From Luminiphilus sp. (GTDB taxonomy: Bacteria > Pseudomonadota > Gammaproteobacteria > Pseudomonadales > Halieaceae): 11,882 nucleotides of DNA. This document shows, piece after piece, positions 690-11,882 of the stretch. The stretch lies in NCBI GenBank assembly GCA_028117185.1, contig JAOHHD010000032.1:1-11882 (forward strand). Reading direction: 5' to 3'. The position numbers and the translations under genes were made by a program. The notes under the pieces are model-generated. The model did not search any database and had not been told where the DNA came from. It was given only the letters and a program-made list of their open reading frames with translations. Numbering within the stretch: the first letter of the stretch is position 1; each line of letters begins with the position of its first letter.

Positions 690-1238
690 GGGGTCATACC
701 GACAACCCGCAGGGGTAACATGATGGGGTGAATAGGGAGCGCATACAGTACGTCGTGGGTTTCCTGCTAGGGCGAAGTGCCGCGAACAGCGGAGCGGACT
801 CGCTATACAAGGTCGAGGTGACTACCGGGATACTGCAGCAGCGGATGTTTCATGATAGTCCTTACTCACGGGCTTGATGCTGGCTGTATCGATCCACCCA
901 ATTCGCTCGAACTGCAACGACGCAGTAGCTGGCTTGGAGGGCATTCGAACACATCCAGTCTCATACAGACAAGCCCAGCGTGACGGTCGGCTGGCGATGC
1001 GGATCCGCCGCTTGTCCTGCTTGCGAGACGCGATTTTAGATATGATGACGCCATGACGAATGGCCACTCAATCAAAAAATTAGCCAGTGCTCTGGTAATT
1101 TGGCGCTCGTGCGTTGCTGACCGCTGCCACTGGCGTATGGTTGAGTGTGAAATGAATAAGCATAGGCTTCGTAGTGTGGTTCGAGAGAGAGCGGCTAATC
1201 ATGGGTGGGTTTGATTGGGCAATGCTGAGCGGGTGTCG
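690..1238. other. About 550-base gene-poor gap between the divergent azlC and DUF418 genes
   Basis: No protein family, tRNA or strong hairpin is recognisable here. It must hold the promoters of the two divergent genes, but no convincing -35/-10 pair stands out; a TTGAGT at 1141 followed by a poor -10 is the best I see for the plus strand. Short overlapping open frames on both strands (822-1067) resemble no known family. A 16-codon minus-strand frame at 803-853 has a good ribosome-binding site (AAGGA five bases before its ATG) and could be a short peptide or the remnant of a gene start. Confidence 0.5.
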
Positions 1239-2414
1239 ATGACGCAGTCCCCTGAACGTATAGCCTTTTTTGATGTGCTTCGGGGCGTCGCGCTGTTTGG
1301 TATCTTGGTCGTCAACGTGTTTAGCTTTGGCGCTGATGCGGCCGTATGGACAGATGCAGCAGACCGTGTTGCCTGGACGCTCAAGCATATCGTCTTTGAA
1401 TCAAAGTTCTGGGCGCTATATAGCGTATTGTTCGGCATCGGCTTTTACCTGCAGCGCATGTCTCCCACTTACACGTTGGCACGTGCTGTTCGCAGGCTGT
1501 CGGTACTGATGGCGTTGGGTTGCCTGCATGCTTTGTTGTTCGAGGGCGACATTCTCATGCTGTATGCGGAGCTGGGCGTGCTCTTACTGTGCCTCAACGG
1601 GCTGCCCAACCGTTGGCTGCTAGGTGTTTGTGTGGCACTTAGCCTCAGTTTTCCGCTCGGACACCTGCTGGGAGATGACCGCGGCGACGAGCGGCCGCCT
1701 GAGAATAGCGAGGAGGCCATTGAGTGGCTTGAGGACGACTTGGCGCACTCACCGTTATCGATTGGTGGCTTTAGCGATGTGGTCACATACCACTCAGGTA
1801 ATATCCCCGAGCGATTCTGGGCCGATTGGCAATATCCAGATTCAGGATTATTGGTGCTCACTTTCTTTTTACTGGGCGTCTATTTTATGCGCGTTGGGTG
1901 GCCTAGATTACAGATGCTCTCGTTTCAATCGGGTTATCGCCTGGCGGCGAGTTTTTGGCTGGCGGGCCTTTTTTTGATGGGAGTAGAGCGTTACTTAGCC
2001 CTAAGTGTGGGCTATGACGCGTTCGGCAAATCAGATGCGTCAGCGCTCTGGGTTCTGTTGGGAGACCTTGTCTACCTTTGCGCTGCGTTCCTGTTAACGG
2101 GTGCTTGGTTTGTCAGCGTGTGGTGCTGGACGCAGGGCAACTGGGCCACGGCGCTTCGTGCGCGCGTTGCAAGTGCGGGCCGGGTGAGTCTGTCGGCATA
2201 CCTCAGTCAAACGCTCATTTTTACGACGGTATTTTATGACTATGGCTTCGGCAAAGCGTTTGAATGGGGGCCGTTCGCGGTATGCTGCTTTGCGGTAGTG
2301 GTTTATTTCGCACAGTTGATGATCTGTCACTGGTGGTGTGAGCGATTCCGTCTGGGGCCGATGGAATGGTTGTGGCGGTCCCTAACGTATCTTCGCTGGA
2401 TGTCGATTCGGTAA
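1239..2414 (+). CDS. DUF418 domain-containing (YeiB-type) integral membrane protein
   Basis: This polytopic inner-membrane protein of about 391 residues belongs to the DUF418/YeiB group, whose molecular function is poorly defined; relatives are often suggested to be transporters. The N-terminus carries the typical RIAFFDVLRGVALFGILVVN motif, followed by FWALYSVLFGIGFYLQR, and a helix containing GDILMLYAELG. The C-terminal DUF418 domain has GRVSLSAYLSQTLIFT and ends with FRLGPMEWLWRSLTYLRW, both characteristic. I prefer the ATG at 1239 because the conserved sequence starts six residues later; TTG at 1215 and GTG at 1233 are in-frame alternatives. The upstream GAGCGGGTG is only a weak ribosome-binding site. 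The gene stands alone on its strand and converges on the synthetase gene, with 91 bases between the two stops and no clear terminator there. Confidence 0.87.
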   Translation: MTQSPERIAFFDVLRGVALFGILVVNVFSFGADAAVWTDAADRVAWTLKHIVFESKFWALYSVLFGIGFYLQRMSPTYTLARAVRRLSVLMALGCLHALLFEGDILMLYAELGVLLLCLNGLPNRWLLGVCVALSLSFPLGHLLGDDRGDERPPENSEEAIEWLEDDLAHSPLSIGGFSDVVTYHSGNIPERFWADWQYPDSGLLVLTFFLLGVYFMRVGWPRLQMLSFQSGYRLAASFWLAGLFLMGVERYLALSVGYDAFGKSDASALWVLLGDLVYLCAAFLLTGAWFVSVWCWTQGNWATALRARVASAGRVSLSAYLSQTLIFTTVFYDYGFGKAFEWGPFAVCCFAVVVYFAQLMICHWWCERFRLGPMEWLWRSLTYLRWMSIR

Positions 2415-2505
2415 TTTGGGTTGGGGCTACTAACTGGTGCTCCCTGAAGACGTCGCTTTCTCGAACACCCAACCGTGGCTCACTGCAATGAAACAGGTCT
2501 TAGCG

Positions 2506-4473
2506 TTACCGGTTAGCGTGATTGGTGGGTTGCGTCGGACTGCCTGTGTGCAGTCCGGGAGCGAGCCGCATCGCCTTTAAAATTAATGACTGCGGCGACA
2601 CCGTCACATCATCTTCCAGCGTGGCGCCGCCCATCAGCATTGAACCATGGTTGATCACGGTGTTGTTGCCAATTGTGGTTCGTGCCACGTTGAGTATGCG
2701 ATTCTCAAAGCTATGGAGCTGCATCTGACCATTCACCACGCAGTCATCACCAATATCAACTGCGTGCCAATCAGAGAGCTGTATGGGTAGCCCGATCAGG
2801 CTTCGTTGGCCGATTCGACAGCCAAACCGCCGCAACAGCGGGTTAGCCAGAGCGGTTCCCGCAACAGTACTCATAAAGCTTGCCATGAGTCGAAAAAAAC
2901 AGTCTTGCGCGAGAAAATACGCGAAATGCCGCACCGACCAAAAAGGGGCGCTATTTTTCGCGCCCCAAGAGTTGCCCACGAGAAGATACTTTATGAGCAA
3001 TGCAAGAAGCGGCAAGCTGATGGGGAACAGGATGCTGGTGATCAGTGCTGCCCCAATATTGCTGAACCCCACTGCATTGAGGGATACCAGCAACATGGTG
3101 GCGATAAAGACAGTGAGGCCTGGTACGACACCGACGGAGGCAAAGTCATTTAAAACAAAGCGCATTATGAAGATCCACCAGGAAGGCTTCGGGTGAACTG
3201 GTTGTGCCTGCTGCAACGTTGCGCCAAGTGATAGTGGCGGGTTTCCTGCGAGAACCCGTTGGAGGTCTGGGCGATCTCTGTATTGCTCTCGGTAGTCATG
3301 AGATCCAATTGGCGTCGAAACCCCCAGAAGCAAATTGCCGGGCAACGCGCCAGGTTCAATCATTGCGTTATTACTAGCGAAGAAGCCCGCGGGTAATCGG
3401 AGTGGTTTTACCAAAAGAAATGCGCCGTGCTCATCCAGGACGTTACAGTAGCAACCTTGTGCAATAAAAATATTGGCATCGGCTTCGAGTTGCTCGGGCA
3501 ATACATTAACGAGCGCGTCGCATTCTGAGGCCCCGACTTGCGAGAATTTTACACCGGCTAGTGCTCGCAGATATTGCCCTGTCAGACTCCAACCCCACAT
3601 TTGCTGGATTTGATTCATTTTAGTTTGTCGGTATCGGGCTAGCGTGCCCGTGAGGCTGACGGCGCCAATCCATCCAGACGGAGTGGGCGTCAGCCGAAGG
3701 AAGAGGCAGATCAGAAGCGAACTAGAGAGCACGCCAATCCAGATGCCGGCGATGCCAGCGCCCCCTATTGCCAGAAGGCCGCTGAGTGTGAGTGCAGTAT
3801 CATCTACGCTGAGCGTGTTGAGCGCGTCTAGGCCAAGAAAAAACGAAGCGATGAGCGCGATAAACGCGCCGGGAATCACCACTAATGACAGTTCGAGTGC
3901 GAGTTGCAGCAAGACATTGCGAACGTCGATGGCGGCCATTATGAGTCGATTGCGCTTTGGGTGATCGGGCGTTTTCACTGGATGGAGCTTGCCCACCGGA
4001 GACCCTGGAACACCACTAATTTGTGAATAAGCGTCGCAAGCACCTTGTAGCGATGACAACGGCGTTAACCACGAGCCCTCTGCGAGGATGCCGCCGGCTG
4101 ACACCATGGCTCGACTCCCCACTCGAGCGCGGGGGCCAATGTGTATGGCTTTTAGGGTGAATAGCGAAGATTCCCATTCGATCGTGCTAATTTGCGCGCC
4201 TGCCTGAATCACAGCGCCTTCCTCAATCGTCATCAGAGAGAGCGGGCCATACCACTCGGTGCTTTGTGCAATGAAGGCGCCGGGGTGAATATGCGCGCCA
4301 AGACTACGTAGAGCCCAATTAAAAAGCGTTGGACTTCTCAGGCCATTCACCAGCGGCCTCAAGACAAAGCCCGCCTGTTGCTCCAGCCACCAAACCTGCA
4401 GGTGGTGCCGGGAATATTTTTGGTAGCGGCCCGGTTCTAATGTGGCTTCTAATCCCATTACAACTTGTATCAA
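2506..4473 (-). CDS. C-terminal half of Pls/PosA-type nonribosomal peptide synthetase (membrane plus three beta-helix domains)
   Basis: This 655-residue open frame is the condensation half of a Pls/PosA-like synthetase. Hexapeptide-repeat, left-handed beta-helix (acyltransferase-like) segments lie around residues 58-140, 300-390 and 540-640. They are separated by two pairs of membrane helices (about 183-215 with 228-260, and about 433-465 with 470-500). This is the alternating soluble/membrane layout of epsilon-poly-L-lysine synthetase, where the three tandem domains form the peptide bonds. The frame begins with TTG at 4473, or ATG at 4458, and neither has a ribosome-binding site. It is in the same reading frame as the upstream adenylation-carrier gene, separated only by a TGA and five sense codons. 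It is therefore probably the rest of one gene rather than an independent one. If translated separately it would lack its partner domains but could assemble with them in the membrane. The frame ends at a TAA at 2506-2508. Confidence 0.85.
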   Translation of the reverse strand: MIQVVMGLEATLEPGRYQKYSRHHLQVWWLEQQAGFVLRPLVNGLRSPTLFNWALRSLGAHIHPGAFIAQSTEWYGPLSLMTIEEGAVIQAGAQISTIEWESSLFTLKAIHIGPRARVGSRAMVSAGGILAEGSWLTPLSSLQGACDAYSQISGVPGSPVGKLHPVKTPDHPKRNRLIMAAIDVRNVLLQLALELSLVVIPGAFIALIASFFLGLDALNTLSVDDTALTLSGLLAIGGAGIAGIWIGVLSSSLLICLFLRLTPTPSGWIGAVSLTGTLARYRQTKMNQIQQMWGWSLTGQYLRALAGVKFSQVGASECDALVNVLPEQLEADANIFIAQGCYCNVLDEHGAFLLVKPLRLPAGFFASNNAMIEPGALPGNLLLGVSTPIGSHDYREQYRDRPDLQRVLAGNPPLSLGATLQQAQPVHPKPSWWIFIMRFVLNDFASVGVVPGLTVFIATMLLVSLNAVGFSNIGAALITSILFPISLPLLALLIKYLLVGNSWGAKNSAPFWSVRHFAYFLAQDCFFRLMASFMSTVAGTALANPLLRRFGCRIGQRSLIGLPIQLSDWHAVDIGDDCVVNGQMQLHSFENRILNVARTTIGNNTVINHGSMLMGGATLEDDVTVSPQSLILKAMRLAPGLHTGSPTQPTNHANR

Positions 4474-4488
4474 ATGGAGAAAAACGAC

Positions 4489-4491
4489 TCA
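4489..4491 (-). other. In-frame TGA codon interrupting the Pls/PosA-like synthetase frame
   Basis: Reading the minus strand, the codons around this site are AAT TTG AGC TGA GTC GTT TTT CTC CAT TTG, with no change of frame between the adenylation-carrier half and the beta-helix half. Without the TGA the two halves form one frame of 1,419 codons matching the single-chain family architecture, with the stop falling inside the predicted second membrane helix. TGA is used as an ordinary stop by the azlC-like, amidinotransferase and asparagine synthase genes here, so genome-wide reassignment is unlikely. The candidates are a nonsense mutation, stop readthrough, or a one-base sequence error from TGG, CGA or TGC/TGT. 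Confidence 0.85.
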
Positions 4492-6765
4492 GCTCAAATT
4501 CACGAAGGGCACGATCATATAGAGGCAATACGTAATAATGGTCGCGCCCAAAAAGCCCAAGATATCGCCTGAAAGTAGCAATACCTCTGGGTCAATAATC
4601 GCCAGTCCTAGTCCCGCAACGAGCACCAGCGGTACGCGAAGTAATACAGCGGCACTGGCCTGCAGTGCACTGAAAGTGCGAAAGGAGTACATATTGCTCT
4701 CGACCTCAGCGTCGTCGCGAGTCGGTGGGGTAAGATGACTGTCCTCGGATGCTACTTCGGGTTGAATCGTGTCAGCGAGTGCCGCGATATCTGCGGCACA
4801 GCGATGTTCGCTAAGCAGAGATCTGACTGTCACGGGATAGCCCGTCGCTTGCAGTGTTTGTGTGAGTTGAGCAATGGCAATGGAGTGAGCGCCCCACTGA
4901 ACAAAGTCGTCGCGCCAACCAAGATCGCTTCCCAGTTTTGCCCGACATAGCGCTAGCACGCGGACGTCGAGCGACTCACCGAGGGCGTCATCTTGTTGTG
5001 GGCTGAGCACCGGTCTCTGGTCGGATGTGCTGGGAAGCGCCGAAACCTGCGGTAACGCACGCCGATCGATCTTGCCCGACGCGGCCACGAGGTCAAATTG
5101 GTCAATGAGAAAGACTCGACTGGGTACCGCATAGGGGGGAAATTTTTGTCCCACGAGCGTTTGTGCTTCAGCCAGTAGCGGCTGCCCAAGTAGCTGCACA
5201 CTCGCGTCCCGTTGGGATTTATGCCAGAGCAATGGCGCGCGAACAAAAGCGATCAGCTCATTGTTTTGACAATCGAGTACCGCAGTTTCGAACTCGGCAA
5301 AGTGATCTTGTAATAGCGACTCAATTGGCTGCGCTTCGACGCGGAACCCCCTTACCTTGAGCTGTGCATCGAGACGACCGTGAAAATGGACTCTCAGGGT
5401 GGTGGGGTCAACGTGGCATCGATCACCCGATCGATACAGGCGACCGAATTGGGGGTGGGTGATAAATTGTGCGGCCGTGGCCTCAGCTCTATTGCGGTAG
5501 CCCTGTGCCAGCTGGCAACCGCCAATGCAGAGCTCGCCCTCTGTGCCATGCGGGAGCAGCGCTAATGTCGCCGGATCAAGAATGAAGTAGGTCACTCCTG
5601 CGAAAGGGCTGCCAATCGTGACTGGCTCATTGGGCCGCAGCAGTTGCCGACTGGTGTCCGTACTCACCTCGGTGGGACCATAAGTATTGACGATCTGCCG
5701 GCGCGCCCTCGACCATGGCTCAACCAGTGAGGCGGGAAAAGCCTCTCCAGCTGGCACGATATAGCGACAAATAGGATAAGGCAGATCAAGTTCAGGGTTG
5801 GTGGTTAAGGTGGAGAGCAAAACGGGCGGGCAAAACAACGCGGTAACACAGTGATCCCTGAGAATCGGGAGCAGTTGTGGACCAGAGCGCAATGCTGCCT
5901 TGGTGAGTAAGACAACCTCGCAGCCGGCGACCCAGGCGCTATACATTTCAGAAATGCTGCCGTCATAACCGAGCGAAGAAGTGAGTGAACTCGCATCACT
6001 ACCAGGTACAAAATCATAAAACGTTGCATACGATTGCACGAGATTGATATATCCGGCATGGGGGCATTCAACGCCTTTGGGTGCGCCGGTGGTGCCGCTG
6101 GTGTAAAAGAGGGAAGCGATTCGCTGGGTTGGCGAACCCTGATCAGCGTTAGGGTTAGACAGCGACCTCAGGGTAGAGGATGCAGTGCGGCTATCTGCAA
6201 CTTTCAGTGACTCAAGAGAACATATCGACATTCCCTCTATCGCAAGAGATGTGTCATTGGTTAATGCAAGTTGCGGATCAGTGATTAGCAGTGCGGGCGC
6301 CGCATCGTCCAATATCTGTTGGTAAAGATGGCTAGGTGACTCCGGATCAATAAAGACTTGCGTCGCGCCGGCCTTGAGAATGGCTAGGTGCAGCGCCACA
6401 GTGTCGACAGAGTCTTGTCGCAAGTGCACGGCCACTATCTCATCATGCCCGCTCAGGTGCTGTCGGATATAGTCAGCGAAGCGATTGGCTTTTGCGTCGA
6501 GTTCGGCGTAGCTGAAAGATTCCCCCGATTCGGGAATCGTGAGCGCAGTAAAATCTGGGAATCGTGCTGCCGAGCGCTCAAAGATTTCATGTAGCCAGCG
6601 CGCACCTATCTGATGGCGATGCTGCCCCCAGCTGTCCCTCGCCGCGGGCTGACTGAGTACCGTTTTGAGGGGGGGAGGTTTAGTGCTCTCCGCCGCGACG
6701 CTGCGGTAGCGCAGCCAGGCAGCGGTCAGCAATAAGAGGAGAAGCGTTATCCATAGGAGGCTCAT
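4489..6765 (-). CDS. Pls/PosA-type nonribosomal peptide synthetase, adenylation and carrier half
   Basis: This 758-residue protein would activate an amino acid as its adenylate and load it on its own carrier domain. Residues 4-18 form a leucine-rich N-terminal membrane segment. The adenylation domain spans about 57-575: P-loop-like YTSGTTGAPKG at 221-231, NTYGPTE at 360-366, YRSGD at 444-448, GRLDAQLKVRGFR at 463-475, and GKIDRRALP at 564-572 with catalytic Lys565. The carrier domain (about 595-665) has WGAHS with the phosphopantetheine Ser628. Two membrane segments follow (about 700-725 and 738-758). By alignment to GrsA from memory, the pocket residues read D G S F V A T T D K; Asp268 is the usual anchor for an alpha-amino group and Asp370 sits where the ornithine code also has Asp. 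The gene starts at ATG 6765, 33 bases after the amidinotransferase stop, without an obvious ribosome-binding site. It ends at an in-frame TGA, after which the family's remaining domains continue in frame. Confidence 0.9.
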   Translation of the reverse strand: MSLLWITLLLLLLTAAWLRYRSVAAESTKPPPLKTVLSQPAARDSWGQHRHQIGARWLHEIFERSAARFPDFTALTIPESGESFSYAELDAKANRFADYIRQHLSGHDEIVAVHLRQDSVDTVALHLAILKAGATQVFIDPESPSHLYQQILDDAAPALLITDPQLALTNDTSLAIEGMSICSLESLKVADSRTASSTLRSLSNPNADQGSPTQRIASLFYTSGTTGAPKGVECPHAGYINLVQSYATFYDFVPGSDASSLTSSLGYDGSISEMYSAWVAGCEVVLLTKAALRSGPQLLPILRDHCVTALFCPPVLLSTLTTNPELDLPYPICRYIVPAGEAFPASLVEPWSRARRQIVNTYGPTEVSTDTSRQLLRPNEPVTIGSPFAGVTYFILDPATLALLPHGTEGELCIGGCQLAQGYRNRAEATAAQFITHPQFGRLYRSGDRCHVDPTTLRVHFHGRLDAQLKVRGFRVEAQPIESLLQDHFAEFETAVLDCQNNELIAFVRAPLLWHKSQRDASVQLLGQPLLAEAQTLVGQKFPPYAVPSRVFLIDQFDLVAASGKIDRRALPQVSALPSTSDQRPVLSPQQDDALGESLDVRVLALCRAKLGSDLGWRDDFVQWGAHSIAIAQLTQTLQATGYPVTVRSLLSEHRCAADIAALADTIQPEVASEDSHLTPPTRDDAEVESNMYSFRTFSALQASAAVLLRVPLVLVAGLGLAIIDPEVLLLSGDILGFLGATIITYCLYMIVPFVNLS

Positions 6766-6798
6766 AGGTCTGAACAGTGCGGGTGCGGCGTGCGCATC

Positions 6799-7848
6799 TC
6801 AATCGAAGTAGGATTCCATCTTACCGCGACGGCGTGTATCCAGTGTCACACAGTGAAACCCGCCGCCCATCATGCGCGAGTGTCTCAGCTTGAGCGGAAC
6901 GACCTCCATGTGGTGGCTTTCTAGCAGCTTGATGAGTGCTGTTTGATCGCGATCGACGACGACTGTATCGGGACCTAAACTAAACAGGTTCATATCAATC
7001 CACTCGCTGCCGATCGCTTGTTCTAGATAGTCTGCGGTGTAGCGATCCTGATTTTCCATGGGGGGGCTAAAGAGTATCTCCCACTGCTTTAAAAAGGGTG
7101 GGATGGTATCCGGCGATAACCGTGCGGGATTGGCGAGTAACAGCCCGGGCTTGAGTGCGACTAAAGTCGAGTCAATATGGCTGCCATAATAGACGTCTTT
7201 CATAAAGTGCACGGTGAACTTGTCTACTAGGACGCGTTGCAACCAGCGACCGCCCAGTTCATTGCCCGTTGCACTCACGAGATACAGCAAATCGCGACCA
7301 AATCGTAATACATTGGCCGCATCAAAGGCGGGTTCAATATTACGAGGAGTCGGTGCTGATACGTCGTATTCAAACAACCGGTCTTCGAGCATGGGCTGGG
7401 GGGCCGCGAACCAATTCGCGCCCTCCTCGAGATACTCCATGAGTAAACGTCGATAGGAGCCTGTTTCGAGGGATCGGCCTCTAATCACGTTGGGTGTTTC
7501 GATAACGGTATCGCCGATAACGAGCAGCACGTCTCTGGGGCAGTAGTTATAGTATCCCTGACACTCCCAGTGGGGCGTCTTGATGACTTGATCATGCGGC
7601 CAGACATCAGGCCTGTGTACAGTGATTCCCCTTGCTTCGAGTGCTTGAATAAACACCTGCAAATCTTCTTCGGTTTCTTCAATAATGTGATCAGGAAAAA
7701 CGCCCTGAGGCAGCGCATCGAGCGCACGATCAGGGTACTCCGCTAGCCGAGTACTTGGATCGGCAAAGGGAAAACGGGCGCCTAACGGATTCCCCACTAC
7801 AACCTCTTCCAACGGATCCCACTCGTTACAACTCCAGACTCTGGGCAT
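6799..7848 (-). CDS. Arginine amidinotransferase (AGAT/CyrA/SxtG family)
   Basis: This 349-residue enzyme belongs to the arginine:glycine amidinotransferase family, which moves the amidino group of arginine onto an amine acceptor, giving a guanidino compound and ornithine. The fold markers are all present: NEWDPLEEVVVG near the N-terminus, YCPRDVLLVIGDTVIETP at about 102-119, and FDAANVLRFGRDLLY with Asp176. Further on are YGSHIDSTLVALKPG with His224, and GGGFHCVTLDTRRRG with nucleophilic Cys333. Asp176, His224 and Cys333 correspond to the family's catalytic triad, so activity is expected. The acceptor is not predictable here: glycine (AGAT, CyrA), a polyketide-derived amine (SxtG) or lysine (phaseolotoxin-type) are known precedents. 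The gene lies 33 bases upstream of the synthetase, which suggests it supplies or modifies that pathway's building block. The start is ATG 7848 with only a weak GAG upstream. The preceding gene ends at a terminator, so it probably has its own promoter. Confidence 0.92.
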   Translation of the reverse strand: MPRVWSCNEWDPLEEVVVGNPLGARFPFADPSTRLAEYPDRALDALPQGVFPDHIIEETEEDLQVFIQALEARGITVHRPDVWPHDQVIKTPHWECQGYYNYCPRDVLLVIGDTVIETPNVIRGRSLETGSYRRLLMEYLEEGANWFAAPQPMLEDRLFEYDVSAPTPRNIEPAFDAANVLRFGRDLLYLVSATGNELGGRWLQRVLVDKFTVHFMKDVYYGSHIDSTLVALKPGLLLANPARLSPDTIPPFLKQWEILFSPPMENQDRYTADYLEQAIGSEWIDMNLFSLGPDTVVVDRDQTALIKLLESHHMEVVPLKLRHSRMMGGGFHCVTLDTRRRGKMESYFD

Positions 7849-7907
7849 CAGCGCTTACTCGAGGTTAAATTAAAAGAGAATTTGATCGGTTTGGGGCGTC
7901 TGGTAAC

Positions 7908-7932
7908 AAAAAAAGGCCACCCTTAGGTGGCC
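7908..7932 (-). terminator. Rho-independent terminator after the small secreted protein gene
   Basis: On the minus strand a perfect 7-bp stem (GGCCACC / GGTGGCC) closes a four-base loop and is followed directly by seven T. It lies 23 bases beyond the stop codon of the small secreted protein gene and about 60 bases before the amidinotransferase start. It therefore separates the two transcription units, or attenuates read-through into the second. Confidence 0.9.
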
Positions 7933-7955
7933 CCAGACAAAATTAAGCGCAGCGC

Positions 7956-8336
7956 TTAAATATCGTCAGCTTCCCACAGAGCAGAGCCGTGGCACGTCAG
8001 CGTTTCACGCTCCATCTGAGCGACGTCTGATGAAGGATAGGCGTCCCAGAATGCGCCGAAGTCCGCAAAGGAACCCCAAGAGACAACATACTGTACGTCG
8101 GTACCGTCACCGTCTGCACCCACTGCTACGGGAAACAGAACGTGAACGTCCATATCACCGCCACCGGGCAGCTTAGACGCCGCGTCCTTCCACTTGCCCG
8201 CCTGCTCAACCACGGACTCTTCTGCGACGTCACCGTTAATATTGCACTTCCACATTTGGACTGGATCACCCGCAGAGGCGAATGGGGACAACAACATCAA
8301 AGCGCTAACTGCTGATACAAAACCTTTAGTTTTCAT
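7956..8336 (-). CDS. Small secreted protein of unknown function
   Basis: The product has 126 residues. It begins with a typical signal peptide: a lysine-containing start, a hydrophobic core of about 14 residues, and an ASA/GD cleavage site near residue 23. The mature protein of about 103 residues is acidic, has two cysteines (about 31 and 114) that could pair in the periplasm, and is rich in Trp, Phe and Gly (VSWGSFADFGAFWDAYPSS). Its size and alternating pattern resemble a single dimeric alpha/beta-barrel (ABM-like) domain, but this is only an impression and I do not recognise the family. ATG 8336 is well supported by an AGGAG ribosome-binding site (8343-8347, reverse strand) eight bases upstream. 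A strong terminator follows, so it is a single-gene unit. No motif links it to the synthetase pathway. Confidence 0.85.
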   Translation of the reverse strand: MKTKGFVSAVSALMLLSPFASAGDPVQMWKCNINGDVAEESVVEQAGKWKDAASKLPGGGDMDVHVLFPVAVGADGDGTDVQYVVSWGSFADFGAFWDAYPSSDVAQMERETLTCHGSALWEADDI

Positions 8337-8364
8337 AGGGATCTCCTAGTTATAGATGCGCAGT

Positions 8365-8393
8365 AATGTATCAACGGCAGTGGTTCAGTACAA
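8365..8393 (-). promoter_or_regulatory. Candidate sigma70-type promoter of the small secreted protein gene
   Basis: Reading the minus strand, TTGTAC (8393-8388) and TACATT (8370-8365) are separated by 17 bases, about 28 bases before the start codon. The match is partial: three of six at -35 and four of six at -10. A 14-base dyad, AATTG-CGAT-CAATT (8397-8410), lies directly upstream of the -35 and could be an operator. Confidence 0.35.
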
Positions 8394-8475
8394 AGTAATT
8401 GCGATCAATTGGGTCTCTGTGTCACCTTTTGCACAATCAGACGTTAAAATCCGCCCAAGAACAATATTTGTCGCT

Positions 8476-8521
8476 AAATCGGACGCCAAAATCGGACGCC
8501 AAAATCGGGCAAAATCGGGTA
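8476..8521. repeat. Short tandem repeat array (2 x 13 bp, then 2 x 10 bp)
   Basis: Two identical 13-base units AAATCGGACGCCA are followed by AAATCGGGCA and AAATCGGGTA, then a further partial AAAACG. The 10-base units look like the 13-base unit with three bases missing and one or two substitutions. The array is too short and lacks the spacers needed for a CRISPR. It lies between the flavoprotein remnant and the small secreted protein gene, upstream of that gene's promoter region. Confidence 0.8.
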
Positions 8522-8537
8522 AAAACGATATTTATCG
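8521..8537 (-). terminator. Possible weak terminator after the flavoprotein remnant
   Basis: On the minus strand CGATA-AA-TATCG is followed by five T, five bases after the TAA stop of the flavoprotein remnant. The stem is only 5 bp and A/T-rich, and it overlaps one of the 15-base repeats, so termination would be weak at best. Confidence 0.35.
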
Positions 8538-8541
8538 CCCT

Positions 8542-9585
8542 TTAAGCAGCAGACTGCCCGGAAGCGAGCCGCTGGCCTAACAACCGCCCAAAGGTAATCG
8601 CGGGCGTCACCAGCATGCCATTGGTATAAGCCGCCCCAGATGTGGCGCCTGCACCAATCACTTCACCGATGGCGAATAAATTTGGGATTGGTCGTGCTTC
8701 GCGATCGAGCACCCGCAAGCTGGCGTCGATGCTGAGCCCCGCGAAGGAGACCAAGGTCCAGCCTTGCATGGCGATGCTGTAGAACGGCGGCTTTGTTAGT
8801 GGCAAGGGTCGTGACACACGGCCATAAGGATCTGCACCGCCAACGGCGATGCTGTGATTGTAATCATTGACGGTTGCGGTGAGGGTGGCGGGATTCAGGC
8901 CTGCTCGGAAGGCCAACTCACTCACTGTCATGGCCCTGTGGAACATGGGGTTACTCTGATACTCGTTGGCAATTCTTTGTCGGGTCCAGTCGGGAATAAT
9001 GGGGTCCGATTTTTCAAGCATGTCAGCGTCAAAAATAGCCCAGTGCCGATGCCCCGGTTGCCGATAGATGCCGCGCTCAATCTGATGCACGCTGGGGTGA
9101 TCTTCTCTCACAAAACGCTCGCCTCGCGCGTTGACGACGATTTCCCAAGGCGATCGAGCCGCAGGGTTTAAGGGGGCGTAGGCAAACATCTGACAGGGGT
9201 AGCGATGGGCATCTGGAATGAGTCCCGGTAGGCAGGCGTACTTTTCCGCGCCGACAATCGCTGCGCCGGCAGACATGCCCAATAGCAGGCCGTTGCCTAA
9301 TGATGTTGGGTAGGCCGTCTGCGCATACAGCGGCACGCCATGTAGCTCCTCGAACAATCTTGGATTGGCAGCGCAGCCGCCCGTCGCAACGACGACATGG
9401 GACGCTTTAACGTCTCGATGTCCAAACGGTCCGTCCACCGTAACGCCTGTGATGGCACCGGAGGGTTGCTGCTGCAGGGCCGTTGCCGACGTGCCCGTGA
9501 GTAGCGTGACTTGTTGATTGCTGATGGCCTGATTGAGACTCGGCATTGGTATAGACCAGCTTGCGTAATACGTCGTCGCGAACAT
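8542..9585 (-). pseudogene. FAD-dependent oxidoreductase (fumarate reductase/succinate dehydrogenase flavoprotein type), N-terminus lost
   Basis: The open frame has 347 residues and corresponds to the C-terminal two thirds of a FAD_binding_2-type flavoprotein, a group that includes fumarate reductases, 3-ketosteroid dehydrogenases and tricarballylate dehydrogenase. Visible markers are VVVATGGCAANPRLF (about residues 64-78) and the closing FAD-site motif FAIGEVIGAGATSGAAYTNG (about 304-323). The N-terminal dinucleotide-binding GxGxxG fold is missing, roughly 150 residues by comparison with the usual size near 490. Homology appears to begin near residue 16; the preceding residues are the out-of-frame reading of the neighbouring enoyl-CoA hydratase gene. 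The apparent ATG at 9585 is therefore an accident of that overlap and has no ribosome-binding site. Without the Rossmann motif the protein could not bind FAD normally. The 3' end is intact. Confidence 0.82.
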
Positions 9586-10048
9586 TACCCCGCCACAAAG
9601 GGTAACCCGCCATATCTGGCACCAGACCCCAGCGCATCTCCATTACGCTACATCGCGTATCGGGATGCACAATACGGATGTCAGCACCTGACAATATATT
9701 GAGCCCGCCTCCAATCGCAATGCCATGCGCGGCAGCAATGACTGGCATAGGCAGCGTTCGCCAACCCCAAGCCACTTGCTGGAAACGATTGGCAACACCA
9801 TGGGTCCGCTCGAGTAATTTTGTCGGTGCGCTATCGCCCTGCAAACTAGCCATATCAAGACCGGCACAAAATCCTCTGCCCTCACCTGAGACCACCACCG
9901 CGCGAAGATCAGGTTGCACTGCCAGCTCAGCGATCGCTGAGATAATAGCGTCGAACATTGCCGAATCCAGTGCGTTTATTTTATCCGGCCGGGTCAAGGT
10001 CACGCGAGCAATATGATCCGAGGTGGTTATCGAGACTCTGTCACTCAT
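9407..10048 (-). CDS. Enoyl-CoA hydratase/isomerase (crotonase) family protein, C-terminus lost
   Basis: Residues 1-167 of this 213-residue frame are a normal crotonase N-terminal part: LTRPDKINALDSAMFDAI at 18-35, the oxyanion-hole segments FCAGLDM (60-66) and GIAIGGGLNI (109-118), then MRWGLVPDM and the family-typical VRDDVLRKLVYT ending at 167. Family members continue for about 90 more residues, including the C-terminal helices needed for oligomerisation. Here the frame instead runs into flavoprotein DNA in the wrong frame, giving about 46 unrelated residues before a stop. ATG 10048 is well supported by GGAG (10056-10059, reverse strand) about seven bases upstream. The promoter-proximal end is thus intact, but the product should be unstable or inactive. 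The natural substrate is unknown; the intact ancestor probably acted in fatty-acid or related acyl-CoA metabolism together with the flavoprotein. Confidence 0.85.
   Translation of the reverse strand: MSDRVSITTSDHIARVTLTRPDKINALDSAMFDAIISAIAELAVQPDLRAVVVSGEGRGFCAGLDMASLQGDSAPTKLLERTHGVANRFQQVAWGWRTLPMPVIAAAHGIAIGGGLNILSGADIRIVHPDTRCSVMEMRWGLVPDMAGYPLWRGNVRDDVLRKLVYTNAESQSGHQQSTSHATHGHVGNGPAAATLRCHHRRYGGRTVWTSRR
9538..9550 (-). other. Fusion junction between the crotonase and flavoprotein genes
   Basis: Crotonase homology stops after LVYT (codon ending at 9548). Flavoprotein homology begins near SLNQAIS (first codon at 9540), in a different frame. The missing parts of both genes would total at least about 700 bases, so a single deletion or an assembly join explains the pattern. 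No insertion sequence or long repeat is visible at the point. Confidence 0.75.
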
Positions 10049-10093
10049 AAAACAGCTCCATTGTGATGATGCGTTCAGTACTCACTGAGGCTT

Positions 10094-10108
10094 GGCATAG
10101 TGTATGCC
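10094..10108. promoter_or_regulatory. 15-base dyad, candidate operator upstream of the crotonase gene
   Basis: GGCATA-GTG-TATGCC is a perfect inverted repeat with 6-base arms, centred about 53 bases upstream of the crotonase start codon. That spacing suits a repressor site. A TATACT resembling a -10 box on the minus strand (10134-10139) lies just upstream, but without a convincing -35. Confidence 0.4.
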
Positions 10109-10185
10109 GAAATACCGCGGAACAGAGAGACCCAGTATAACGCTCACGGGTCGAACCACGACATCAACCCAAGAATGCGCGCCCT

Positions 10186-11882
10186 TCATTCACTTAAGTA
10201 CCTGAGTGGATCAATTTGCTCGGGCAACCCACCCACCGTCGACTCGACAAAGAGGCGATGCCAAAGCGCAAACTGCAACAGGCTCATTAACAGGCGGCCT
10301 GCGCCACCCGAACGTTGCTGAGTGGCGAGCGCTAATGTGACACCTTTTGGATTAAACCAACGTCTTATCGCTTCATTGCGCAGCAGGATTTGACCTAGCA
10401 GCGCCAAGCGATCGCCCTGCCACCAGTCATTAACGGGCACATAAAAACCGCGTTTTTTAGCTGCGAAATGCTCGGTGGGCATAAAGCCCGCTGCCCACTG
10501 CTTGAGAATTTTCTTACCTTCGTGCCGGTCACTTTTAAGGCTGTCCGGCAGCATAAGCCCCCATTCAACGATTCTGCGATCGACAAACGGCATGCGCCCC
10601 TCGACGCCTTGCGCCATCAACATACGATCAGCTTTGACCAAGAGGTTATTTGGCAATGCATGCTCAAGGTCCAACGCCTGCATTTTTTGCAAGGCACTCC
10701 AGCGCGATGGGTAAGATCCCCAGCTCTCTATCAGCGGCGTGCGCCAGTGCGCGCGAGCAGCTTGCAAATCAGGCCCCAATAACTGGTTGGCAATACTGCC
10801 CCGTAGATCGCCTCTAGCGCGAAATCCACCGGTTCCCGGAAATAAACAGCGTTTCATGAAGCGTTCTGCAGCACCCGTGCGGTAACGACCGTAACCGGCA
10901 AAACTTTCATCGCCGCCCTCACCCGAAAAAACGACCTTCATCGTTTTGGAGGCTTCCTCTGCTAACAGGAGCGTTGGCAAGTTGGCCGGGTCGCGCATTA
11001 AGTCATCAGCGGCCCACACGGTTTGCACCAAACGAGCTAGCAAGTCATCTGGCGTGGGCGTGATCACGCGATGGCGGGTGCTAAAATGCGTCGCTAGCCG
11101 AGTGGCCACATCGAGCTCATCCCCCACGGAAGATCCGGGAAACCCGATCGAAAAAGTATGGATATCCTCCATGCCATAGCGGCGCATCAGACCCAGCAAG
11201 ATAGTGGAATCCACGCCGCCTGATAGAAATAGTCCAATGGGCACATCGGCACGTTGATGCTGCGTGAAGACGCCCTCCATTAAGCTATCAAGTGACGAGA
11301 TCGGATCGGCGTGACTATTCGGCGTGGTCTGAGCAACGGACCAATGACGCCAGCGCTCAACTCGTTGACCTGCCCTGATGAGTACCGCTTCGCCGGGCAG
11401 TACTCGTTCAATACCGCAAAAAGGGGTGTCACGGGCGAGCGGATGCTGCGCCTCCATATACTGAACCAATGCGGTCGGGTTGAGATCTGGCTGTTGCGGC
11501 ATCAGGGCCAGTAATGCCTTAATCTCAGAAGCAAAACGCACCCCCGCAGTCTCCTCGTAACAGTACAAGGGTTTCATTCCGAGGGGGTCACGTACCAGCA
11601 GCACTTCGTTCTGCTCGGCATCATGCAGCGCAAAGGCATACATGCCCTCTAGCCTAGTCAGGACATCTCGGCCCCAGGCGGCGTACCCTTGCAGGATGAC
11701 CTCTGAGTCCGATTGCGTTGCAAAACGGGCACCTTCGGATACGAGCCGCTCTCTCAGCTCGATATGGTTATAGATCTCGCCATTTGCCACCAACGCAAAA
11801 CGACCGCAGGATGACCGTAGCGGCTGAGCCCCCCCCCTCAAGGTCAATAATCGATAGCCGGGTATGGCCCAACGCCACCCCA
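10186..11882 (-). CDS. asnB: Asparagine synthase (glutamine-hydrolysing), 5' end outside window, frameshifted at a G9 tract
   Basis: This is a class-II glutamine amidotransferase joined to an ATP-dependent synthetase domain, as in AsnB. The glutaminase part shows ANGEIYNH (around 11764-11787) and VRDPLGMKPLYC. The synthetase part shows the PP-loop FLSGGVDST with SGGVDST at 11203-11223, then FSGEGGDESFAGYGRY and VEGRMPFVDRRIVEW. The C-terminus appears complete, with a TGA stop at 10186-10188. The catalytic Cys2 and about 55 N-terminal residues lie beyond the window. From the edge the frame reads GHTRLSIIDLEGG, then a run of nine G (11829-11837) shifts it; eight G would give IIDLEGGAQPL, the expected family sequence. 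As written, the upstream frame ends at a TAA at 11768-11770. The role could be asparagine synthesis or amidation in an exopolysaccharide or natural-product pathway. The 137-base gap to the next gene gives no clear sign of co-transcription. Confidence 0.88.
   Translation of the reverse strand, partial: GWRWAIPGYRLLTLRGGAQPLRSSCGRFALVANGEIYNHIELRERLVSEGARFATQSDSEVILQGYAAWGRDVLTRLEGMYAFALHDAEQNEVLLVRDPLGMKPLYCYEETAGVRFASEIKALLALMPQQPDLNPTALVQYMEAQHPLARDTPFCGIERVLPGEAVLIRAGQRVERWRHWSVAQTTPNSHADPISSLDSLMEGVFTQHQRADVPIGLFLSGGVDSTILLGLMRRYGMEDIHTFSIGFPGSSVGDELDVATRLATHFSTRHRVITPTPDDLLARLVQTVWAADDLMRDPANLPTLLLAEEASKTMKVVFSGEGGDESFAGYGRYRTGAAERFMKRCLFPGTGGFRARGDLRGSIANQLLGPDLQAARAHWRTPLIESWGSYPSRWSALQKMQALDLEHALPNNLLVKADRMLMAQGVEGRMPFVDRRIVEWGLMLPDSLKSDRHEGKKILKQWAAGFMPTEHFAAKKRGFYVPVNDWWQGDRLALLGQILLRNEAIRRWFNPKGVTLALATQQRSGGAGRLLMSLLQFALWHRLFVESTVGGLPEQIDPLRYLSE
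11829..11837 (-). repeat. Nine-G homopolymer causing an apparent frameshift in asnB-like gene
   Basis: The coding strand has nine consecutive G between the codons for LSIIDL and AQPL. The upstream frame (GHTRLSIIDLE) and the downstream frame (GAQPLRSSCGRFALV) are both clear asparagine synthase sequence but differ by one base. A tract of 8 (or 5 or 11) would join them. Such tracts are prone to both slippage in the cell and sequencing error. Confidence 0.85.

What the first reader, a model, noticed from the sequence alone, without database searches (positions are those of the whole stretch)
2506..6765. Pls/PosA-type synthetase split by one in-frame TGA inside a membrane helix
The two halves of a single-chain family lie in the same frame, separated only by TGA and five sense codons, and neither possible start of the second half has a ribosome-binding site. 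Possible explanations are a true two-protein synthetase, programmed stop readthrough (both a short carrier-only form and a full synthetase), recent nonsense inactivation, or a base error. The rest of the 1,419-codon frame is intact, which argues against long-standing decay.
Basis: partly seen in the sequence, partly recalled or inferred. Interest (0 to 1): 0.8.

Follow-up and report, generated by a model that had tools for sequence, protein, structure and literature searches.

The report
Private stop codon in synthetase gene
A marine bacterium's large peptide-polymer-type enzyme gene carries one premature stop codon at a place where its relatives encode tryptophan, so this is most likely an ordinary recent knock-out mutation (or a sequencing error) and not a new two-part or readthrough enzyme.

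Summary
In detail: on the minus strand, frame 2506-6765 is open for 1,419 codons except for one TGA at 4489-4491. The gene's closest relatives are in marine Luminiphilus (Halieaceae). A sister protein, P0022, is one chain of 1,419 residues, 1411 identical, with Trp at the site. Trp stands there in 50 of 53 other aligned proteins. Of 41 loci examined, the 40 that cover the site all have TGG, including 26 of 26 genus genomes covering it, of 57 searched. Code change is excluded: 8 of 9 conserved Trp positions are TGG, and three neighbouring genes end in TGA. No recoding structure was found. dN/dS against close relatives is low on both sides of the TGA, so the stop is young. It is a private change: a recent strain- or cell-specific nonsense mutation, or an error. 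The window also holds a private inverted junction (9538-9545, 8 shared bases) that breaks two genes and resembles single-cell amplification chimeras, a reason for caution. Without reads, mutation and error cannot be separated; I lean to mutation.

The parts
2506..6765 (-). Frame of one NRPS-like synthetase (adenylation, carrier, membrane / beta-helix C-terminal part), 1,419 codons interrupted by one TGA
4489..4491 (-). In-frame TGA (codon 759); Trp/TGG in relatives; the differing base is plus-strand position 4489 (T)
4489..6765 (-). Upstream ORF: AMP-binding domain (residues 62-423), carrier domain (603-663), first membrane helices
2506..4473 (-). Downstream ORF with no convincing start: rest of the membrane and beta-helix part (Hexapep 1363-1396 of the joined frame)
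9538..9545 (.). Private inverted junction with 8 shared bases joining a truncated enoyl-CoA hydratase gene to a truncated FAD-dependent oxidoreductase gene; a caution about the contig, not part of the synthetase

Best explanation
The gene is a normal single-chain NRPS-like membrane synthetase of marine Luminiphilus, in which this one cell or strain carries a recent single-base nonsense change (a TGG Trp codon read as TGA; C to T on the plus strand). Shown: the TGA, its absence from the relatives examined, the low dN/dS on both sides. Inferred: translation stops after codon 758, giving an adenylation-carrier protein with part of the first membrane helix pair and none of the beta-helix lobes. 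That product should load a substrate but not polymerise it, because adenylation plus carrier domains alone made no polymer in the related epsilon-poly-lysine synthetase (work reported in PMC10522769, passages seen).
For: Sister P0022 is 1411/1419 identical, one chain, Trp at 759. Trp in 50 of 53 further aligned proteins; the 3 exceptions (Arg) are 25-26% identical and aligned loosely. TGG in 40 of 40 loci that cover the site, of 41 examined (32 distinct sequences), including 26 of 26 genomes of the genus that cover it, of 57 searched. The frame has 24 TGG and one TGA; of 9 columns where at least 90% of relatives have Trp, 8 are TGG. TGA ends three other window genes, and the amidinotransferase among them has the same length, 349 aa, in the relative L050. 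dN/dS of the window against L001, L002, L003: 0.147, 0.161, 0.171 before the TGA; 0.098, 0.089, 0.094 after it; against L009 0.159 and, over 163 codons only, 0.133. The rest of the frame has no further stop. Seven other residue differences to the sister show that ordinary within-species divergence is present.
Against: No reads and no second sequence with this TGA were available, so the change could be an error. The contig carries another private oddity that looks like an amplification chimera. No protein ending at the site was among the 3 matches, so the allele was seen nowhere else; the 42 member sequences behind P0022 were not seen one by one.
Confidence: 0.6

Rival explanations
1. The TGA is an error of amplification, sequencing or assembly; the organism has an intact gene.
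For: A C-to-T change is the form left by cytosine deamination, which one single-cell protocol was changed to suppress (PMC8214697, passages). The window holds an inverted junction with 8 shared bases whose two sides lie 5.7 kb apart in the relative L050, matching the commonest class of multiple-displacement-amplification chimera: inverted, under 10 kb apart, short complementary sequence (PMC1855051, passages). No other sequence examined has the TGA.
Against: No other stop in the 1,419-codon frame. By my own rough estimate, ordinary polymerase error rates make a stop in one given gene less likely than a real nonsense change. That the window comes from single-cell amplification is inferred, not known; in another study chimeras were rare and mostly about 500 bp apart, at most 5000 bp (PMC10945365, passages).
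Confidence: 0.34
2. Programmed readthrough, reinitiation or a true two-protein enzyme: the TGA is functional, giving both a short adenylation-carrier protein and some full or separate C-terminal part.
For: The frame after the TGA is fully open and conserved; a TTG follows five codons after the stop.
Against: Trp in the sister and TGG in the 40 loci that cover the site; no ribosome-binding sequence before either start; downstream RNA folds no better than its shuffles, z 1.11; no Rfam match at gathering score and no tRNA in the window; conservation after the TGA is explained by the intact ancestor.
Confidence: 0.03
3. The organism reads TGA as Trp.
For: The site is Trp in relatives.
Against: The frame has 24 TGG and only this one TGA; of 9 columns with Trp in at least 90% of relatives, 8 are TGG; the AzlC, amidinotransferase and asparagine-synthase genes of the same window end in TGA, the amidinotransferase at the same length as in L050.
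Confidence: 0.01

Closest known systems
Intact orthologue in a sister sequence (P0022) and in Luminiphilus genomes
   Same: 1411 of 1419 residues identical to P0022, same length and no gaps; 86% with the copies of G001-G003
   Different: Trp/TGG at codon 759 where the window has TGA
epsilon-poly-L-lysine synthetase (Pls) and delta-poly-L-ornithine synthetase (PosA)
   Same: Adenylation domain, carrier domain, then about 700 residues with three membrane helix pairs and beta-helix lobes (PMC10522769 passages; model)
   Different: Sequence is distant: TIGR02353 142.9 bits against cut-off 423.1; an amidinotransferase gene lies next to it; substrate and product unknown
Ordinary nonsense pseudogene / private nonsense allele
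   Same: One stop in an otherwise intact, selected frame, absent from the relatives examined
   Different: Presence in the cell's DNA not confirmed by reads
Multiple-displacement-amplification chimera (for the separate junction at 9538-9545)
   Same: Inverted, segments under 10 kb apart, short shared sequence (PMC1855051 passages)
   Different: Origin of the window is unknown, so a real inversion is not excluded

Membership tests
Pls/PosA family synthetase (NCBIfam TIGR02353) | Score above the curated cut-off | tested here: not met
   142.9 bits for P0022, 125.3 for P0045, 119.2 for P0060, 117.8 for the window's downstream half; cut-off 423.1
Pls/PosA family synthetase (NCBIfam TIGR02353) | Order adenylation - carrier - membrane domain with three helix pairs and three beta-helix lobes | tested here: inconclusive
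   Pfam AMP-binding, PP-binding, Hexapep in order; model with three long helix pairs and beta-helix strands in the first and last lobe, middle lobe poorly modelled, pLDDT under 50; weak Foldseek matches to hexapeptide acyltransferases, 4 with E up to 0.001, low TM-scores
Pls/PosA family synthetase (NCBIfam TIGR02353) | Makes an isopeptide-linked cationic homopolymer | not testable with these tools
   needs expression and product analysis
Programmed stop readthrough gene | In-frame stop conserved among relatives | tested here: not met
   0 of 40 loci that cover the site (41 examined, 32 distinct sequences) have a stop there
Programmed stop readthrough gene | Stable RNA structure directly after the stop | tested here: not met
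   z-score 1.11; 174 of 200 shuffles fold at least as well
Nonsense pseudogene | Stop private to one lineage in a gene intact elsewhere | tested here: met
Nonsense pseudogene | Stop present in the cell's DNA | not testable with these tools
   no reads available

The most novel reading that the evidence does not exclude
Some cells of this population keep a TGA allele that is partly read through, so that the same gene yields mostly an adenylation-carrier protein and a little full synthetase, a tunable on/off state of polymer synthesis.
Probability: 0.02. Interest if true: 0.55.

Novelty: not a real feature. Interest (0 to 1): 0.1.

Why it matters
Mainly as a caution: a gene cut in two in one environmental sequence need not be a new split enzyme. 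A sister at 99% identity and a count over the genus settle that. If the mutation is real it is ordinary loss of an accessory biosynthetic gene. The intact family, with its conserved neighbouring amidinotransferase gene, may deserve study in its own right.

Tried and rejected
Code reassignment was tested with conserved Trp columns and with the stops of neighbouring genes, and rejected. Recoding was tested by folding the stretch after the TGA, an Rfam scan at gathering score and a tRNA scan, and found no support. A 758-residue form was looked for with the last protein search: 3 matches, 0 ending at the site (lengths 875, 897, 1033). The plasmid collection (downstream half) gave only four Streptomyces plasmids with weak matches over 18% of the query; the phage collection gave none. 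The seven other residue differences to the sister were compared with relatives: the five upstream ones (204, 573, 574, 578, 692) fall mostly at variable positions, and at 574 it is the sister that departs from the commonest residue. The two downstream ones (821 and 1155) fall where 34 and 35 of 53 relatives have the sister's residue. Two sites are too few to claim relaxed selection. dN/dS against the more distant L024 and L025 is saturated or nearly so at synonymous sites and was not used. A search for Luminiphilus single-cell papers listed one paper, which I did not read. Foldseek against PDB gave only weak acyltransferase-type matches.

Full report
OBSERVATION. The gene lies on the minus strand. 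Searches confirm an upstream ORF 4489-6765 (758 aa, stop TGA) and a downstream ORF 2506-4473 (655 aa from TTG) in one frame, with the TGA and five sense codons between them. With the TGA read as X, the frame has 1,419 residues and ends in TAA. Neither TTG 4473 nor ATG 4458 has a ribosome-binding sequence (by eye). That both halves belong together is shown by homology, not by chance arguments.

WHAT IT IS. Pfam finds an AMP-binding domain (62-423), a carrier domain (603-663) and a hexapeptide repeat (1363-1396). The closest DNA relatives are metagenome-assembled genomes of marine Luminiphilus / Halieaceae, at about 82-85% DNA identity over the long shared stretches. The label Pls/PosA is a distant fit only: 142.9 bits against a cut-off of 423.1. 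The general layout resembles that of PosA and epsilon-poly-lysine synthetase as described in PMC10522769 (passages): six membrane helices in three pairs and three beta-helices. A model of the C-terminal 823 residues of the relative L002, from 16 aligned sequences, shows three pairs of long helices with beta-helix strands; confidence is moderate (mean pLDDT 68.7), and residues 479-516 and 528-599, the middle lobe, are poor. The Trp equivalent to the TGA is residue 165 of that fragment, in helix 158-175, which I read as part of the second member of the first pair. A stop there removes all beta-helix strands of the model.

IS THE STOP PART OF THE FAMILY? No. P0022 (a cluster of 42 member sequences, longest contig 67,939 bases) is 1411/1419 identical, without gaps, and has Trp at 759. 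I aligned 55 proteins: the window's frame, the 45 new matches and 9 of the 20 matches. The 11 others were left out: P0002, P0003, P0004, P0006 and P0011, which I had read, begin after the site; P0012, P0013 and P0018-P0021 I did not examine at the site. Beside P0022, 50 of 53 have Trp; the other 3 (P0062, P0065, P0066) have Arg and are 25-26% identical, with a loose alignment. At DNA level, 41 loci were given; 40 had a match across the site, and 40 of 40 have TGG there (for L010 the residue fell beside an alignment gap; one search shows its Trp and TGG). L019, which matches only residues 51-577, had none. The 40 loci hold 32 distinct sequences, since several are the same stretch reached twice (the pattern used there missed L015 and hit an earlier Trp in L044 and L045, for which I rely). 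Of 57 genomes of the genus searched, 26 have a match that spans the site, and 26 of 26 have TGG (L001-L004, L024-L045). Two of these 26 (G014, G055) show the gene in two overlapping pieces, broken around residues 1187-1203 and 286-300, so sporadic breaks occur elsewhere in the gene; I did not examine whether these are real.

ALTERNATIVES TO A PREMATURE STOP. A changed code is excluded: the frame has 24 TGG and one TGA; of 9 columns where at least 90% of relatives have Trp, 8 are TGG; and the AzlC, amidinotransferase and asparagine-synthase genes of this window end in TGA, the amidinotransferase at the same 349 residues as in L050. The stretch after the TGA folds slightly worse than the mean of its shuffles (z 1.11). 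No RNA family reaches its gathering score and there is no tRNA in the window. The last protein search (upstream half, region 590-758) gave 3 proteins, none ending at the site; its reach is limited, and cluster members are not listed singly.

HOW OLD IS IT? dN/dS of the window against L001, L002 and L003 is 0.147, 0.161, 0.171 for codons 1-758 and 0.098, 0.089, 0.094 for 760-1419; against L009, which ends early, 0.159 and 0.133 (163 codons). For the neighbouring amidinotransferase it is 0.034, 0.037, 0.040 against L001-L003. Within the downstream part, codons 760-950 are less constrained (0.133-0.183) than 951-1419 (0.067-0.076). The part after the TGA is thus at least as constrained overall as the part before it. 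That is expected if the stop is very young; it is not evidence that the downstream part is still made.

MUTATION OR ERROR? The differing base is plus-strand 4489, T in the window, where the TGG of relatives implies C. This is a transition common both as mutation and as damage. One further fact bears on the quality of the contig. Against L050 (a relative's genome), window 1238-9545 and 9538-11881 both align, the second in the opposite orientation, with the two ends 5.7 kb apart (L050 10805 and 16472). The eight bases TGCCGAGT are common to both parents at the join. The join cuts an FAD-dependent oxidoreductase (401 aa in L050) and an enoyl-CoA hydratase (259 aa in L050). In 6 of 6 relative loci in which the hydratase or asparagine-synthase gene was found (L002, L003, L005, L008, L013, L018), it lies opposite to the synthetase, whereas in the window it has the same orientation. 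Lasken and Stockwell report that 406 of 475 amplification chimeras were inverted, 337 of them under 10 kb apart, mostly with short complementary sequence (PMC1855051, passages). Against this, a later study found chimeras rare and mostly about 500 bp apart, at most 5000 bp (PMC10945365, passages). So the window may come from amplified DNA; a real inversion is not excluded. This lowers trust in single-base oddities, but by my own rough judgement an ordinary nonsense mutation remains the likelier source: 0.6 against 0.34.

CONCLUSION. A private premature stop in a gene that is one chain in the sister and has a sense codon at the site in the 40 loci that cover it: ordinary recent inactivation or an error, not a split or readthrough enzyme.

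Noticed in passing
6799-7848 (-), next to the synthetase: An amidinotransferase (best sequence match in PDB: inosamine-phosphate amidinotransferase 1bwd, then SxtG, HsvA and arginine:glycine amidinotransferase; no Pfam match) lies directly upstream of the synthetase in 15 of the 16 relative loci that carry sequence before the gene (19 loci L001-L019; L004, L007 and L015 begin at the gene), including Verrucomicrobiota and Desulfobacteraceae records; the exception is L019. Two literature searches for the combination found 0 papers. The pair may make a guanidino-type product; this is inference.
   Followed up: partly
9538-9545: Private inverted junction with 8 shared bases that truncates an enoyl-CoA hydratase gene and an FAD-dependent oxidoreductase gene; looks like an amplification chimera, or else a real inversion.
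   Followed up: yes
7956-8336 (-): A 126-residue protein with a signal-like start (by eye) and no Pfam or NCBIfam match, found just upstream of the amidinotransferase in 12 of 19 relative loci and once (L014) a few kb away at 37% identity.
   Followed up: partly
P0016 (398 aa; longest contig 193,056 bases): A relative with Trp at the site whose sequence turns unrelated about 110 residues later, as after a frameshift.
   Followed up: no
G014 contig 53 and G055 contig 1: Two genus members have the synthetase in two overlapping pieces on one contig, broken at other places than in the window.
   Followed up: no
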